From Photobacterium profundum SS9 (GTDB taxonomy: Bacteria > Pseudomonadota > Gammaproteobacteria > Enterobacterales > Vibrionaceae): 64,000 bases of DNA. Position numbers and translations under genes: made by a program. Shown in pieces: positions 12,500 to 24,779 of the stretch; the stretch's first letter is position 1, and each line of letters begins with the position of its first letter. Under the pieces are notes generated by a model. That model saw only the letters and a list, made by a program, of their open reading frames with translations, made no database searches and was not told where the DNA came from. The stretch lies in NCBI RefSeq assembly GCF_000196255.1, contig NC_006370.1, positions 836,187-900,186 on the forward strand. The letters are read 5' to 3'.

Positions 12500-12527
12500 C
12501 TTGTTTTATTAATCGCGAATCGATTGA

Positions 12528-12558
12528 AATACCCAGCCTTGTGTTGGGTATTTTTTTA
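12528..12558 (+). terminator. terminator after der
   Basis: AATACCCA / TGGGTATT stem with a nine-base loop, followed by a run of seven or more T. It sits 28 bases after the der stop. Confidence 0.85.
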
Positions 12559-12568
12559 TCTGGTACTT

Positions 12569-12730
12569 ATACCAACCTAAATCAGTATCTGTTCATTCTT
12601 GCTGGTTAAAATCGATAATGACTGCGTTAGAAATTTTATAATTAGAGCCACTAGTTACTTCAATTTCTATCTTGTTCTTACCGATTTTTTCTGCGCAAAT
12701 TTATGACCATTTACTTATCCAGATTGGTAT
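12569..12730 (-). repeat. miniature inverted-repeat element, copy A
   Basis: A 162-base non-coding element. The left end ATACCAACCTAAATCAGTAT and the right end, ending AGATTGGTAT, are inverted copies of each other. Its reverse complement matches the element at 43231-43395 at about 80% over the full length by eye, including the shared core GAAGTAACTAG and the block TTTTAACCAGCAAGAATGA. Two near-full copies with matching ends define a dispersed MITE-like family. It lies 10 bases after the der terminator. Confidence 0.8.
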
Positions 12731-12768
12731 TATCTCGATCAATACCATCATAAAGAAAGGCTCAATAT

Positions 12769-13644
12769 ATGTCTGATGTTACACCAACCCACGTATTATT
12801 TACGGTGCCACAATGGCAAACAGAAGCTGAAATTCAGCTATGTGAACCAGCCACTTCACATGGCGTATATGTGGTAACAGATCGCACCTGTTTTCATCCT
12901 GTTAGTCATATTTGGCCAGATCACCCTGCAGATAAAGGTACTATTGCCTTGAGAGATAGTTGCTTTGATGTGGCCGGTTGTTTTACTGGTGCCGTTGATT
13001 TAGCGACGAATACGCTTCGTGTCGGTACAGATATTCCCGTTAAACGTGATGCACCGGGTTGGACGTTTGTTGTGGTGCATTATATTGCTGAAGACGTTCA
13101 ATGGAGCAAGGGAGATACAGTCACCTTGTCGGTTGATAAGGCTTATCAACAGGCATTAAGCCGTGGGCATAGCGCAGGACACCTTTCTTCTTTAGCGCTC
13201 AATAAAGTGCTACATAGTGATTATTGGCGTAAGGATGCTTCACGTAAAGATGAATTAGGTCATTATGATTTTCACAGTTACGCTCAGCAGCAGAGCATTG
13301 TAAGTGAAGATAAAAGTACAGATACCTATCGGTTAGGTAAAACATTGCGTAAACGTGGGCTAAATACCGCTGATATGCTGGCTAATTTAGTCGCGTTAAC
13401 CGAGCTTATTAACCAGCAGCTAGAAACTTGGCGCCAGAGTAGCGCTGCGGTAGTGATGCGTCGTGAAGGCACGCAGTTAACTGATTCACGTTACTGGCAA
13501 TGTGATTTAGGGGAGAAGGAAATGATTGAAATTCCATGTGGTGGCTCTCACATCCAGTCTCTTGCTGAATACAGTGCGTTATATGTTCAGTTCGAACATG
13601 TTAGCGATCAGGAATTGGTTATGATTACTCATACAAAATCATAG
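12769..13644 (+). CDS. AlaX-like alanyl-tRNA editing domain protein (metal-dependent hydrolase)
   Basis: 291 aa. The centre carries SRGHSAGHLSSLALNKVL, with the HxxxH zinc motif of the alanyl/threonyl-tRNA synthetase second additional domain. Near residue 255 IPCGGSHIQSL supplies the CxxxH partner. Free-standing proteins of this kind (AlaX) hydrolyse misacylated Ser- or Gly-tRNA(Ala) in trans. The N-terminal about 120 residues resemble the beta-barrel part of the editing module. The specific substrate cannot be read from sequence. The start at 12769 has AAAGAAAGG upstream. It is a single gene with its own terminator. Confidence 0.75.
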   Translation: MSDVTPTHVLFTVPQWQTEAEIQLCEPATSHGVYVVTDRTCFHPVSHIWPDHPADKGTIALRDSCFDVAGCFTGAVDLATNTLRVGTDIPVKRDAPGWTFVVVHYIAEDVQWSKGDTVTLSVDKAYQQALSRGHSAGHLSSLALNKVLHSDYWRKDASRKDELGHYDFHSYAQQQSIVSEDKSTDTYRLGKTLRKRGLNTADMLANLVALTELINQQLETWRQSSAAVVMRREGTQLTDSRYWQCDLGEKEMIEIPCGGSHIQSLAEYSALYVQFEHVSDQELVMITHTKS

Positions 13645-13679
13645 TTATTTTTTTAAATAGAATTTTAGATTAATTAAAG

Positions 13680-22208: not shown

Positions 22209-22266
22209 TATCCAAGCCACCTCAAAATTCTCGCTGAACTCTGCATCTTGAGGTGGTTTGGGTATA
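22209..22266. repeat. palindromic intergenic repeat (58 bp)
   Basis: The left arm TATCCAAGCCACCTCAA and the right arm TTGAGGTGGTTTGGGTATA are inverted copies with few mismatches. A nearly identical right arm occurs at 34437-34458 before tadA, so this is a dispersed element. The right end reads TATATT toward cheR and could give it a -10 box. Confidence 0.6.
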
Positions 22267-22317
22267 TTCGGGGGGAAGGAGTTGTCTTTTCCGGTTATGG
22301 CAGAAAAGGAGAACGCC

Positions 22318-23169
22318 ATGAAGTGTGAAAGCGCGGCTCTGAACAAGCCAGATGAATTATTCAATCAGGACGCCATTTCCAACAGGGATTTTTCACGGTT
22401 TCAGCAGTTAATTTATGATCTTGCTGGTATCACCTTGGGGAATAACAAAAAAGTCTTGGTGGTCAGCCGGCTGGCCTGTCGGCTCAGACACTTTTCTTTA
22501 AATAGCTTTGCTGATTACTATCGGCTGTTAATGGGCGATACGGCGGCAGGGGAGTTGCAAATAGTGGTTGATCTGCTGACCACCAATGAAACTCACTTTT
22601 TCCGAGAGCCGAAACACTTTGGGTTTATACAAAGAGAGATACTGGCGAATAGATCACCGCAACAGTCGTTGCGCTGCTGGAGCGCCGTCTGCTCAACGGG
22701 AGAGGAGCCGTACAGTCTGGCGATGTTATTGGCGAGCACCTTTGGCGAAGAAGCGGATTGGACTGTATTAGGTTCTGATATTAATTCGCAAGTATTAGAA
22801 AATGCATGCAGCGGGCAATATCCGAGTTCGCGGCAAAGCGAAATCCCGACTCGTTACTTGCAGCAATATTGCTTAAAAGGTGTCCGTTCTCAGCAAGGCT
22901 CTTTTTTAATCAATAGCCAACTGCGCCGACATGTTCACTTTAAGCAGATTAATCTCAATGGCTCGCTGCCTTCGTTGGGAACATTTGATTTTATCCTGTT
23001 ACGCAACGTACTGATCTATTTCTCGGCGAAAACCAAGCAAGCCGTTATTTTGCGAGTAGTGCCCTTACTCAAGCCTGGAGGGTATTTATTCGTTGGCCAT
23101 TCGGAGACGATAAATGGGATCAGTGATCAACTGCGTCTTATCAAGCCCAGCATTTATCAAAAGTTATGA
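22318..23169 (+). CDS. cheR: chemotaxis protein methyltransferase CheR
   Basis: 283 aa from ATG 22318, which has AAGGAG eight bases upstream; in-frame alternatives at 22297 and a TTG at 22258 have poorer spacing. It transfers methyl groups from SAM to glutamates of MCP helices. The N-terminal helical domain is followed by VDLLTTNETHFFREPKHF, the SAM-binding CWSAVCSTGEEPYSLAM, and LILLRNVLIYF-type FDFILLRNVLIYF, ending in PGGYLFVGHSET. All are standard CheR blocks. The local large MCP ends in a CheR-docking-like pentapeptide. Confidence 0.95.
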   Translation: MKCESAALNKPDELFNQDAISNRDFSRFQQLIYDLAGITLGNNKKVLVVSRLACRLRHFSLNSFADYYRLLMGDTAAGELQIVVDLLTTNETHFFREPKHFGFIQREILANRSPQQSLRCWSAVCSTGEEPYSLAMLLASTFGEEADWTVLGSDINSQVLENACSGQYPSSRQSEIPTRYLQQYCLKGVRSQQGSFLINSQLRRHVHFKQINLNGSLPSLGTFDFILLRNVLIYFSAKTKQAVILRVVPLLKPGGYLFVGHSETINGISDQLRLIKPSIYQKL

Positions 23170-23239
23170 TACCAATCATATTAAATGATTGTGCAATAAG
23201 CTGAGTTGGTTTGCTGGAGAGTTCTTTTAGGTGGGTCAT

Positions 23240-24316
23240 ATGGAAAGAAAAAAAATCAAGGTAATGGTGGTTGATGACTCAGCCGTTGTGCGTCAGGTGG
23301 TTTCTTCTGTATTGAAGAGTGACAGTGAGATTGAAGTCTGCGGCGCTGTCGCCGATCCCCTGTTTGCGATGACACGAATGCGGATGCAGTGGCCTGATGT
23401 GATCGTACTCGATATTGAGATGCCCCGCATGGACGGGATTTCATTTCTTAAAAAGATCATGGCTGAGCGGCCAACGCCAGTGGTGATCTGCTCCACATTG
23501 ACCGAAAAAGGGGCGGATACCACGATGCAGGCAATTTCGGCCGGTGCGGTTGAAATCATTACTAAACCCAAGGTAGGCCTGAAAGGTTTCCTGCATGACT
23601 CAGCCAAAGTATTGATAAATGCTGTTAAAGCTGCCAGCCGTGCAAACCTGAAGCCGCTTCAGCGCGCGATGGCATCCAATCTGAAAGTCACTCCAAAACT
23701 AAGTGCCGACGCTGTGTTGGCGGAGGGCAATACATCGCGGCTTAAAACCACAGAACAGCTGGTGGCAATAGGTACGTCTACTGGCGGCACTCAGGCGTTA
23801 GAGCTGGTGTTGAAGGCGCTGCCGCGGGTTTCACCGGGGATCGTGATCGTACAGCATATGCCGGAGAAATTCACTGCCGCCTTTGCCGAGCGGCTCGACA
23901 GCCTTTGCGAAATCAGCGTAAAAGAAGCTAAGCATAAAATGCGCGTGCTTCCAGGCCAGGCTTTGATTGCGCCTGGGGGCAAACACATGCTGTTAAAGCG
24001 CAGTGGTGCTCAATATTATGTTGAAGTTATTGATGGCCCTTTAGTGAGTCGTCACCGTCCTTCTGTAGATGTGTTATTTCGCTCGGTAGCTCAATCGGCA
24101 AGTGGGAATGCGCTGGGGATCATCATGACTGGTATGGGGGATGATGGCGTCAAAGGAATGCTGGAGATGCGACGGGCAGGAGCCGTTACTCTGGCGCAGG
24201 ATGAAGCCAGTTGTGTGGTCTACGGTATGCCCAAAGAAGCGGTTAAGTGTGGTGCGGTTGAACGCAGCTTGTCACTCTCGGAAATACCGCAAGCTATTCT
24301 CGACTGCAGTCATTGA
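23240..24316 (+). CDS. cheB: chemotaxis response regulator protein-glutamate methylesterase CheB
   Basis: 358 aa from ATG 23240, with TTTAGGTGGG upstream (a GTG three codons earlier is possible). The receiver domain has acidic DD at residues 12-13 and phosphoacceptor Asp58 in VLDIEMPRMDG. The C-terminal methylesterase has catalytic Ser180 (GTSTGG), His206 (VQHMPEKF) and Asp302 (TGMGDDG). It removes MCP methyl groups when phosphorylated by CheA, opposing CheR. Last gene of the cluster. No cheD lies between cheR and cheB, where some clusters have one. Confidence 0.95.
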   Translation: MERKKIKVMVVDDSAVVRQVVSSVLKSDSEIEVCGAVADPLFAMTRMRMQWPDVIVLDIEMPRMDGISFLKKIMAERPTPVVICSTLTEKGADTTMQAISAGAVEIITKPKVGLKGFLHDSAKVLINAVKAASRANLKPLQRAMASNLKVTPKLSADAVLAEGNTSRLKTTEQLVAIGTSTGGTQALELVLKALPRVSPGIVIVQHMPEKFTAAFAERLDSLCEISVKEAKHKMRVLPGQALIAPGGKHMLLKRSGAQYYVEVIDGPLVSRHRPSVDVLFRSVAQSASGNALGIIMTGMGDDGVKGMLEMRRAGAVTLAQDEASCVVYGMPKEAVKCGAVERSLSLSEIPQAILDCSH

Positions 24317-24779
24317 GATAAATTAAACCTGTTGCTATTTAGTGAAAGAACTGAGCAAATAAATTGCATTACATTAAGCCCAAATGGGCAGTTCAACAAA
24401 GCCCTTCGTGAGTGGTACCAGATCGGTGGGAAGAATCATCCCAAATGGAAGGCTCTTTGCCATCTACGTTATGGACTCCTTCCACTTGATAGGCGGCAGA
24501 TGCAGCTCCCCATAAAAAGTTATCAGGAAACGCTAAGCTGATTTTGTTGGTCGACATAGCAAGCTTACCTTTAGGTCATTAAACGGAATATGATGGACAG
24601 AGAGACAATATCGCAATAATGAAACCGACTTCATTGTTTGTTTTTTATGTGATCATGCTCAAGATAAAGTCTGCTTATGCGTTGGATCAAAGGATCGTTC
24701 TAGACTTAATAATTTTATTTGTGCTTGATTATATGATCACTCATCATGTAGGTAGATGATTTGAAAGAAAGGGAAGGTT
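24317..24779. other. 463-base non-coding stretch at the right edge of the chemosensory cluster
   Basis: No convincing gene. A 69-codon plus-strand frame at 24332-24541 has no ribosome site and no recognisable family, although its Trp/Arg-rich content could be a relic of a coding sequence. AT content rises from about 24600. A small GATC-rich repeat (GGATCAAAGGATC) lies near 24693. This is the junction between the inserted cluster and the ancestral yfgJ-xseA order. Confidence 0.5.

What the first reader, a model, noticed from the sequence alone, without database searches (positions are those of the whole stretch)
12500..24779. Complete chemosensory operon inserted into the conserved der-yfgJ-xseA-guaB block
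E. coli and relatives have der-yfgJ-xseA-guaB-guaA. Here the order is intact on both sides, but about 12 kb separates der from yfgJ. The insert holds a miniature repeat, an AlaX-like gene, a truncated lacI relic and eight chemosensory genes on one strand. The cluster's sequence is visibly richer in G/C and in CTG/GGC/GCC codons than its neighbours. The broken lacI fragment at the left edge and gene-free debris at the right edge look like insertion scars.
Basis: partly seen in the sequence, partly recalled or inferred. Interest (0 to 1): 0.7.

Follow-up and report, generated by a model that had tools for sequence, protein, structure and literature searches.

The report
Imported chemosensory cluster replacing sugar genes
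A ten-kilobase set of bacterial signalling genes, related to those that steer swimming, was very likely imported from another branch of the genus Photobacterium and overwrote most of a sugar-digestion locus, whose broken ends are still visible on both sides.

Summary
Confirmed and sharpened. Eight intact chemosensory genes lie in a foreign segment of about 10.2 kb (window 14223-24402). Its edges are two relics of one older locus: the last quarter of a lacI gene on the left and the first ~51 codons of a GH1 beta-glucosidase gene on the right. Two close relatives hold an intact GH1-lacI pair there and no che genes, so about 2.2 kb was replaced. The alaX-like gene and the miniature repeat lie outside the insert.

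P. frigidiphilum shares the insertion. Three other Photobacterium species carry the cluster between alaE and mscM-type genes, a fourth beside alaE. Composition, patchy distribution and synonymous distances point to transfer from a higher-GC Photobacterium lineage; the outgroup-rooted protein tree is unresolved.

The main receptor lacks seven residues in each arm relative to E. coli Tar (36H), hence 34H, and has a CheR-tether-like tail. This suggests an F8-like, probably non-flagellar system: a new member of a known kind, absent from the 2005 table of SS9 transferred elements.

The parts
11018..12499 (+). der, left conserved flank
   Evidence: 98-99% identical in G011, G018, G031
12575..12741 (.). 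dispersed miniature repeat, not part of the insert
   Evidence: 40 matches listed in the own genome; absent at this place from G018 and G031, partly present in G011
12769..13644 (+). AlaX-like gene, ancestral neighbour of der
   Evidence: weak AlaRS/AlaX model matches, below cut-offs, no Pfam match; present beside der in 15 of 15 fetched relatives
13969..14222 (-). relic: 3' end (about the last 82 codons of 335) of a lacI-family gene
   Evidence: Peripla_BP_3 C-terminal match; homologous to the 3' end of intact lacI in L010 and L011
14223..24402 (.). foreign segment, 10,180 bp, carrying the chemosensory operon; by comparison with G011 its left edge could be put at 14211
   Evidence: no homology to the empty sites L010/L011; left edge in G011; GC 48.2%; homology to the P. 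obscurum cluster spans 14381-24303 with two short gaps, so about 160 bp on the left and 100 bp on the right are of unknown origin
14400..15593 (+). mcp1: membrane-anchored receptor, no sensor or HAMP domain found, conserved C-terminal -FF (here EITFF)
   Evidence: PF00015 only; tail and hydrophobic segments; homologues start at this ATG rather than the GTG at 14265
15609..15977 (+). cheY: single receiver domain, phospho-acceptor residues kept
   Evidence: PF00072; alignment with E. coli CheY
15992..16303 (+). STAS-domain protein, motif DTAG
   Evidence: PF13466/PF01740; motif
16367..18607 (+). cheA
   Evidence: Hpt, H-kinase_dim, HATPase_c, CheW domains
18664..19239 (+). cheW
   Evidence: PF01584
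19345..22140 (+). mcp2: 931-aa receptor with large periplasmic part (dCache_1 in the P. obscurum orthologue, two stretches; no Cache match in SS9's own protein), HAMP, 34H-type signalling domain, C-terminal DFEVF
22258..23169 (+). cheR (likely start ATG at 22318)
   Evidence: PF01739/PF03705; homologue in G027 begins at the corresponding MECNS
23231..24316 (+). cheB (likely start ATG at 23240)
   Evidence: PF01339 + PF00072
24403..24557 (-). relic: first ~51 codons of a GH1 beta-glucosidase gene
   Evidence: minus-frame peptide; homologous to intact 478-aa GH1 in L010/L011 (PF00232 581 bits)
24780..25007 (+). yfgJ, right conserved flank
25145..26491 (-). xseA, right conserved flank
   Evidence: found in 52 of 52 Photobacterium genomes

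Best explanation
In the common ancestor of P. profundum SS9 and P. frigidiphilum, a self-contained chemosensory operon (mcp1-cheY-STAS-cheA-cheW-mcp2-cheR-cheB) from a higher-GC Photobacterium lineage entered the chromosome between der and yfgJ. It took the place of about 2.2 kb of a GH1 beta-glucosidase-lacI locus and left the 5' end of the one gene and the 3' end of the other (replacement shown; donor lineage inferred). The operon has stayed open and under purifying selection since (shown). It encodes an F8-like system (inferred from receptor class and operon parts): a periplasmic signal is passed by mcp2 through CheW to CheA. Receptors are tuned by CheR, tethered to the C-terminal DFEVF, and by CheB, without CheD. 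CheA phosphorylates a CheY that is probably not the flagellar switch regulator (inferred), since the same genome has a separate flagellar CheA. Mcp1 and the STAS protein are accessory parts conserved in the type. How the DNA got in is not shown; an IS110-type fragment at the left junction in P. frigidiphilum suggests insertion-sequence activity or illegitimate recombination.
For: Empty sites: G031 and G018 (XseA 99% and 98% identical) have intact GH1 and lacI and no che genes at the site. Intact GH1+lacI lie there in 8 of 14 fetched relatives without che at the site. Shared insertion: G011 (P. frigidiphilum) has the same cluster and both relics; 4-fold-site identity SS9-G011 is 0.91 for core and che genes alike, and SS9+G011 are sisters in the core tree, 100/99. 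Composition: GC3 of che 0.46-0.55 against 0.27-0.35 for six neighbouring core genes, but 0.45-0.68 in the same core genes of carriers G027/G001/G032. Synonymous similarity SS9-G027: che median 0.518 (n=7) against core 0.379 (n=20), p=4e-5; for G027-G001 the order is reversed, che 0.358 (n=7) against core 0.521 (n=40). Other site in other species: alaE-[che]-mscM-type in G027, G001, G032, and beside alaE in G042. Class: seven-residue gap in each arm against Tar; 34H receptors are assigned to F8 in P. syringae, whose F8 receptor also carries a C-terminal pentapeptide (PMC11253619, passages and section 19). Function kept: full-length open frames for all 8 genes in both SS9 and G011, dN/dS 0.05-0.27.
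Against: The rooted tree of seven concatenated che proteins does not reject grouping of G027 with G001/G032/G042 as in the species tree (difference 1.77 log units, p-AU 0.35; SS9+G011+G027 support only 56/46), and long outgroup branches are involved. The CheA tree alone groups G027 with G001 weakly, 87/63. For SS9-G001, che (0.398, n=7) and core (0.367, n=25) do not differ (p=0.82). The nearest sampled carrier, G027, is not close (4-fold identity 0.52), so the real donor is unsampled. No direct repeat at the junctions exceeds chance, and the eight che genes fill the segment, leaving no integrase. No F8 reference sequence was in hand, so the class rests on heptad count and parts, not on a class model.
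Confidence: 0.77

Rival explanations
1. Vertical inheritance with relocation: the cluster was ancestral in Photobacterium at the alaE-mscM site and moved inside the SS9 lineage to der-yfgJ, with losses elsewhere.
For: Other carriers share one site (alaE-mscM); the rooted protein tree does not exclude the species-like grouping. In SS9, G011 and G031 the interval between the two genes is 5.1-5.4 kb, and in SS9 it holds tryptophanase, aromatic amino acid transporter and pdxY genes, so the site is active.
Against: The che genes kept GC3 near 0.5 in a genome whose other genes at this locus, and its mscM-type gene, sit near 0.35; 46 of 52 Photobacterium genomes have no CheA match of this type (a few of them incomplete); synonymous distances SS9-G027 and G027-G001 do not follow the core genes.
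Confidence: 0.13
2. It is an F7-type system (stage-3-like, with a Tar-like receptor), not F8.
For: It contains a STAS gene and an mcp1 whose conserved aromatic tail recalls the McpA-like receptors of F7 (PMC7184735 Results).
Against: Receptor signalling domain shorter by seven residues in each arm than Tar and than the Aer2-like receptors of F7-like clusters in L028 and L086; no Aer2-type PAS-HAMP receptor; CheA falls apart from the F7-like sequences of Vibrionaceae and from E. coli CheA, though E. coli sits on a long branch.
Confidence: 0.15
3. Two separate events: a deletion first joined the GH1 and lacI remains, and the che cluster entered the damaged locus later (or the cluster came first and the deletions followed); an IS110-type element made the deletion.
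For: P. frigidiphilum keeps a 121-bp IS110 transposase 5' fragment between the lacI relic and the che flank, 90-93% identical over its whole length to three Vibrio plasmid stretches. The junctions are still changing: SS9 lacks 141 bp that P. frigidiphilum has on the left, and P. frigidiphilum lacks 61 bp that SS9 has on the right.
Against: The fragment lacks the element's terminal repeat, and no intermediate genome (GH1-lacI remains without che) was seen among the 14 relatives fetched.
Confidence: 0.3

Closest known systems
F8 chemosensory system of Pseudomonas syringae pv. tomato DC3000 (CheA1, PSPTO_0912; PMC11253619, passages and section 19 read)
   Same: A 34H receptor with a C-terminal pentapeptide in the cluster; a separate flagellar F6 system in the same cell. 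In P. syringae the F8 CheY does not bind FliM.
   Different: Here there is no CheD, the receptor has a very large tandem dCache-type sensor, and a second sensor-less receptor (mcp1) and a STAS gene are in the operon; whether P. syringae has CheD or those two in its operon I did not check.
F7 system, stages 1 and 2 (Vibrio cholerae cluster III, Shewanella Che1; PMC7184735 Results read)
   Same: Two receptors of different kind, one with a CheR-tether tail; STAS-type gene; cheY, cheA, cheW, mcp, cheR, cheB in a run.
   Different: F7 has a cytosolic 36H Aer2 receptor with PAS-HAMP repeats, two cheW (stage 1) and cheD; a stage-1-like F7 cluster is seen here in another Photobacterium (G044, L028).
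Similar clusters in the Vibrionaceae genus coded g12 (G218, G224, G237, G186, G155)
   Same: mcp1, cheY, (STAS), cheA first, then cheW and mcp2, then cheR and cheB; mcp1 tail -FF; seven-residue gaps in the mcp2 arms in the four aligned, G237 not aligned.
   Different: CheA only 43-48% identical pairwise; cheW after mcp2 in G237, G186 and G155 and on both sides of it in G224; CheD inside the cluster in G224, G237 and G186.
Laterally transferred elements of P. profundum SS9 (Campanaro 2005, PMC1239915, section 6 part 1 with Table 1 read, other passages seen)
   Same: Compositionally deviant chromosome-1 segments of 5-47 kb.
   Different: No element of that table overlaps chromosome-1 850.4-860.6 kb; the table lists only elements missing from (or duplicated in) strain 3TCK and/or DSJ4.

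Membership tests
F8 chemosensory class | 34H receptor in the cluster | tested here: met
   one 7-residue gap in each arm relative to 36H Tar, and to Aer2-like receptors; done by alignment, not by the published heptad models
F8 chemosensory class | receptor with C-terminal pentapeptide and CheR with the matching loop length (as in P. syringae) | tested here: met
   DFEVF/DFEAF tails; CheR aligns with E. coli CheR without a gap in the region that I recall as the pentapeptide-binding loop; the link of loop and tail is from a passage and recall
F8 chemosensory class | CheA groups with F8 reference CheA | not tested
   no named F8 reference sequence obtained
F8 chemosensory class | array height about 20 nm by cryo-tomography | not testable with these tools
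   -
F7 stage 1/2 | Aer2-like 36H PAS-HAMP receptor | tested here: not met
F7 stage 1/2 | cheD | tested here: not met
   no PF03975 match in the genome
flagellar F6 system | CheA encoded in the flagellar cluster | tested here: not met
   the genome's other CheA at C2:1041826-1043085 lies inside the polar flagellar cluster given as 993676-1046789; this CheA lies at about 852.6 kb and is 39% identical to it over about 410 residues
recent horizontal acquisition | empty site in close relatives | tested here: met
recent horizontal acquisition | foreign composition | tested here: met
recent horizontal acquisition | rooted gene tree in conflict with species tree | tested here: inconclusive
integrase-type genomic island | integrase, tRNA site or flanking direct repeats | tested here: not met
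   no tRNA in the window, the eight che genes fill the segment, no junction repeat above chance

The most novel reading that the evidence does not exclude
F8-like operons travel among Photobacterium species as minimal, integrase-free cassettes, with insertion-sequence debris (IS110 type) at their edges. In the SS9/P. frigidiphilum lineage the cassette was kept because a tandem-dCache sensor and a non-flagellar output serve its deep-sea life better than the beta-glucoside locus that it replaced (that P. frigidiphilum is a deep-sea species is recalled).
Probability: 0.12. Interest if true: 0.65.

Novelty: new member of a known kind. Interest (0 to 1): 0.42.

Why it matters
It gives a two-sided record, bracketed in time by sister species, of how a whole signalling operon enters a chromosome by replacement: both broken host genes, an intact pre-insertion site and a likely donor clade can all be pointed to. 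It also places an F8-like, presumably non-flagellar, chemosensory system in a genome that matches P. profundum SS9, a deep-sea bacterium that is genetically tractable and used as a model for life at pressure (PMC3669370 abstract as listed), so its role can be tested directly there.

Tried and rejected
Rejected: an intragenomic move from the alaE-mscM site as the simplest account (composition and distribution); tree conflict as proof of transfer (the unrooted 5-species tree cannot show it, and the rooted one is unresolved); att-like repeats at the junctions (7-bp direct match, reached by 124 of 300 shuffles; 8-bp inverted match, reached by 30 of 300); a repeated element at 14226-14280 (one copy in SS9; related short stretches near unrelated genes in G018, G011 and G022; not explained). 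The AlphaFold model of mcp2 from a shallow alignment was useless (mean pLDDT 37.8) and was not used; the sensor type rests on Pfam in the P. obscurum orthologue and on precomputed domains. A deeper alignment was made but not folded. Errors of mine: the yfgJ query, and the GH1-relic query, were translated one frame off, so their percent identities there mean nothing; the presence of those stretches rests on DNA comparison and on ORFs in L010. I first labelled the gene next to the other cluster copies mscK; NCBIfam names it MscM, and script outputs and notes still say mscK. One search counted some overlapping mechanical ORFs as genes; one search repeats it with overlaps removed and is the one cited. 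One che gene of eight fell out of the comparisons by its filters; one search used all eight. The searches scored only 8000 and 7993 candidates and listed 120 each. The named scan used patterns too specific to reach beyond Photobacterium. Of the 52 genus genomes I fetched the der-xseA locus of 15, chosen mostly by XseA similarity.

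
Full report
What genome this is. The window is part of a 4,085,304-bp contig; the genome has 6,403,280 bases in three contigs, one of 2,237,943, which leaves 80,033, exactly the size given for the plasmid of P. profundum SS9 in PMC1239915 Table 1. The polar flagellar cluster given there (993,676-1,046,789 of chromosome 1) also fits the place of the other CheA. I therefore take it as P. profundum SS9; the tools did not name it.

The observation. Between der (11018-12499) and yfgJ (24780-25007) lie, on the + strand, mcp1, cheY, a STAS gene, cheA, cheW, mcp2, cheR and cheB. 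All eight are open at full length in SS9 and in G011. GC of 14223-24402 is 48.2%, of the rest of the window 42.6%. Among non-overlapping ORFs of at least 150 aa, third-position GC averages 0.511 in the cluster (6 ORFs, minimum 0.46) and 0.346 outside (39 ORFs, maximum 0.43).

The true edges. Left: an 82-aa minus-strand ORF (13969-14217) is the C-terminal end of a LacI-type regulator. Right: the minus strand from 24557 reads as the first ~51 residues of a GH1 beta-glucosidase. In G031 (L010) and G018 (L011), whose XseA is 99% and 98% identical and which have no CheA of this type, the same place holds an intact GH1 gene (478 aa, PF00232 581 bits) followed by an intact lacI gene (335 aa). DNA homology to these empty sites stops at window 14222 and resumes at 24403. 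So 10,180 bp stand in place of 2,179 bp (L010) or 2,218 bp (L011). By comparison with G011 the left edge could be set 12 bp further left, at 14211. Homology to the cluster of P. obscurum covers 14381-24303, so the outermost 160 and 100 bp are of unknown origin. Of the 14 fetched relatives without che at the site, 8 have intact GH1 and lacI there, among them three species that carry the che cluster elsewhere, and 6 have neither. The AlaX-like gene is present beside der in 15 of 15 fetched loci, so it is old. The miniature repeat near 12575-12741 is one of 40 listed genomic matches and is not at the junction.

Who else has it. In 52 Photobacterium genomes a CheA at least 76% identical is found in 6, the own genome included. 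Only G000 and G011 have it at der-yfgJ; G011 is P. frigidiphilum JCM 12947. A CheA 94% identical is recorded for P. sagamiensis. In SS9 itself the alaE-mscM interval is occupied by tryptophanase, aromatic amino acid transporter and pdxY genes.

Direction of transfer. Six core genes of SS9 at this locus have GC3 0.27-0.35, the same genes of G027, G001 and G032 0.45-0.68, and the che genes of SS9 0.46-0.55; SS9's mscM-type gene (0.35) and, less, alaE (0.42) look native. At 4-fold sites SS9 and G027 agree at a median 0.518 in che genes (n=7) against 0.379 in core genes (n=20, p=4e-5), although median protein identity is alike (0.84 and 0.85). G027 and G001, by contrast, agree less in che genes (0.358, n=7) than in core genes (0.521, n=40). 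SS9 and G001 show no difference (0.398 and 0.367, p=0.82). SS9 and G011 agree equally in both (0.91) and are sisters in the core tree (100/99), so the insertion is at least as old as their split; intact GH1-lacI in G018 and G031 makes it younger than the split from those. PMC5489566 (passages) reports two GC groups in the genus, about 40% and 50%. Against this: a protein tree of seven concatenated che genes rooted on five Vibrionaceae clusters leaves the position of G027 open (SS9+G011+G027 56/46; alternative p-AU 0.35; long branches), and the CheA tree alone leans weakly the other way (87/63). I therefore rest the claim of transfer on composition, distribution, empty sites and synonymous distance, not on the tree.

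Junction details. In G011 the left junction still holds 121 bp of an IS110-family transposase 5' region between the lacI relic and the che flank. Matches lie on five Vibrio plasmids, 85-93% identical; under two of the five an IS110 family transposase is annotated. The element's end, seen in the plasmids as an inverted repeat, is missing in G011. SS9 lacks this fragment (141 bp shorter there), and G011 lacks 61 bp at the right junction that lie in SS9 between two CCCAAATGG copies. No junction repeat above chance was found in SS9, no tRNA gene is in the window, and the che genes leave no room for an integrase.

What the system is. Mcp2 (931 aa) has two hydrophobic membrane segments, a large periplasmic part and HAMP; the P. 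obscurum orthologue scores for dCache_1 in two stretches, SS9's own protein for none. Compared with E. coli Tar and with the Aer2-like receptors of two F7-like clusters, its signalling hairpin lacks exactly seven residues in each arm. Tar-like receptors are 36H (PMC7184735, Results read), so I count it as 34H. In P. syringae the 34H receptor belongs to the F8 system and is that strain's only one with a C-terminal pentapeptide (PMC11253619, passages and section 19). Mcp2 ends in DFEVF, which fits the motif x-[HFYW]-x-x-[HFYW] quoted in PMC7184735. Mcp1 has no sensor or HAMP domain match and ends in -FF in all nine cluster-type sequences compared, SS9 included; the F7 McpA-like protein of G044 ends in VELF. 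The STAS protein has DTAG where, as I recall, phosphorylatable anti-anti-sigma factors have DSSG. CheY keeps the phospho-acceptor residues but differs from E. coli CheY at the position I recall as Tyr106 (Trp here). No CheD match is found in SS9, G011, G027, G001 or G032, nor in G218, G155, G018 and G031; 4 of the 13 genomes searched have one. Five of the 12 stretches fetched show a similar operon plan, with cheW and mcp2 in either order and, in one (L081), no STAS ORF detected.

Function. Selection is purifying between the two carriers (dN/dS 0.045-0.27 for the eight che genes). The working model is a second, non-flagellar chemosensory pathway: periplasmic signal, mcp2, CheW, CheA, CheY, with CheR/CheB adaptation. 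Its output is unknown. The P. syringae F8 CheY did not bind FliM in a two-hybrid test (passage), which is the reason to expect a non-motor output here.

Prior print. PMC1239915 section 6 (first part, with Table 1) lists SS9 transferred elements absent from (or duplicated in) strains 3TCK and/or DSJ4; none overlaps this place. The searches, and passages in PMC4019646, PMC3669370, PMC2890568 and PMC5489566, showed no description of this cluster. Most subscription papers are not in the library, so this is not proof of absence.

Verdict. The boundaries, the nature of the right scar and the replaced locus are new here. It is a well-documented case of a known kind of event and a new member of a known kind of system.

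Noticed in passing
L031 5465-9620 (G000:C2:2936464-2940619): The alaE-mscM interval of SS9 holds tryptophanase, aromatic amino acid transporter and pdxY genes; the same interval holds the che cluster in three other species and about 60 bp in G018. It looks like a variable insertion site.
   Followed up: partly
window 12575-12741: Miniature repeat of about 161 bp with 40 listed matches in the genome, on both chromosomes.
   Followed up: partly
window 14226-14280; L045, L046, L048: A stretch of about 50 bp upstream of mcp1 recurs beside unrelated genes in G018, G011 and G022 (group II intron matches lie near it in G022) but occurs once in SS9. Unexplained.
   Followed up: partly
L028 (G044:C2:112000-131900): A stage-1-like F7 cluster (cheY-cheA-cheW-cheW-aer2-cheR-cheD-cheB-mcpA). 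Apart from the six carriers, G044 is the only one of 52 genomes with two CheA matches.
   Followed up: partly
window 42721-43143 (minus): An IS110-family transposase match (open frame 174 aa) in the window, one of eleven PF01548 matches in the genome.
   Followed up: no
mcp1 C-termini, window 15579-15590 and L024, L026, L027, L078-L081, L084: Receptors of the mcp1 type end in -FF (EITFF, VSFF, IEFF, ITFF; nine of nine compared); a conserved tail that is not the CheR pentapeptide, reminiscent of the conserved McpA tail of F7 systems.
   Followed up: partly
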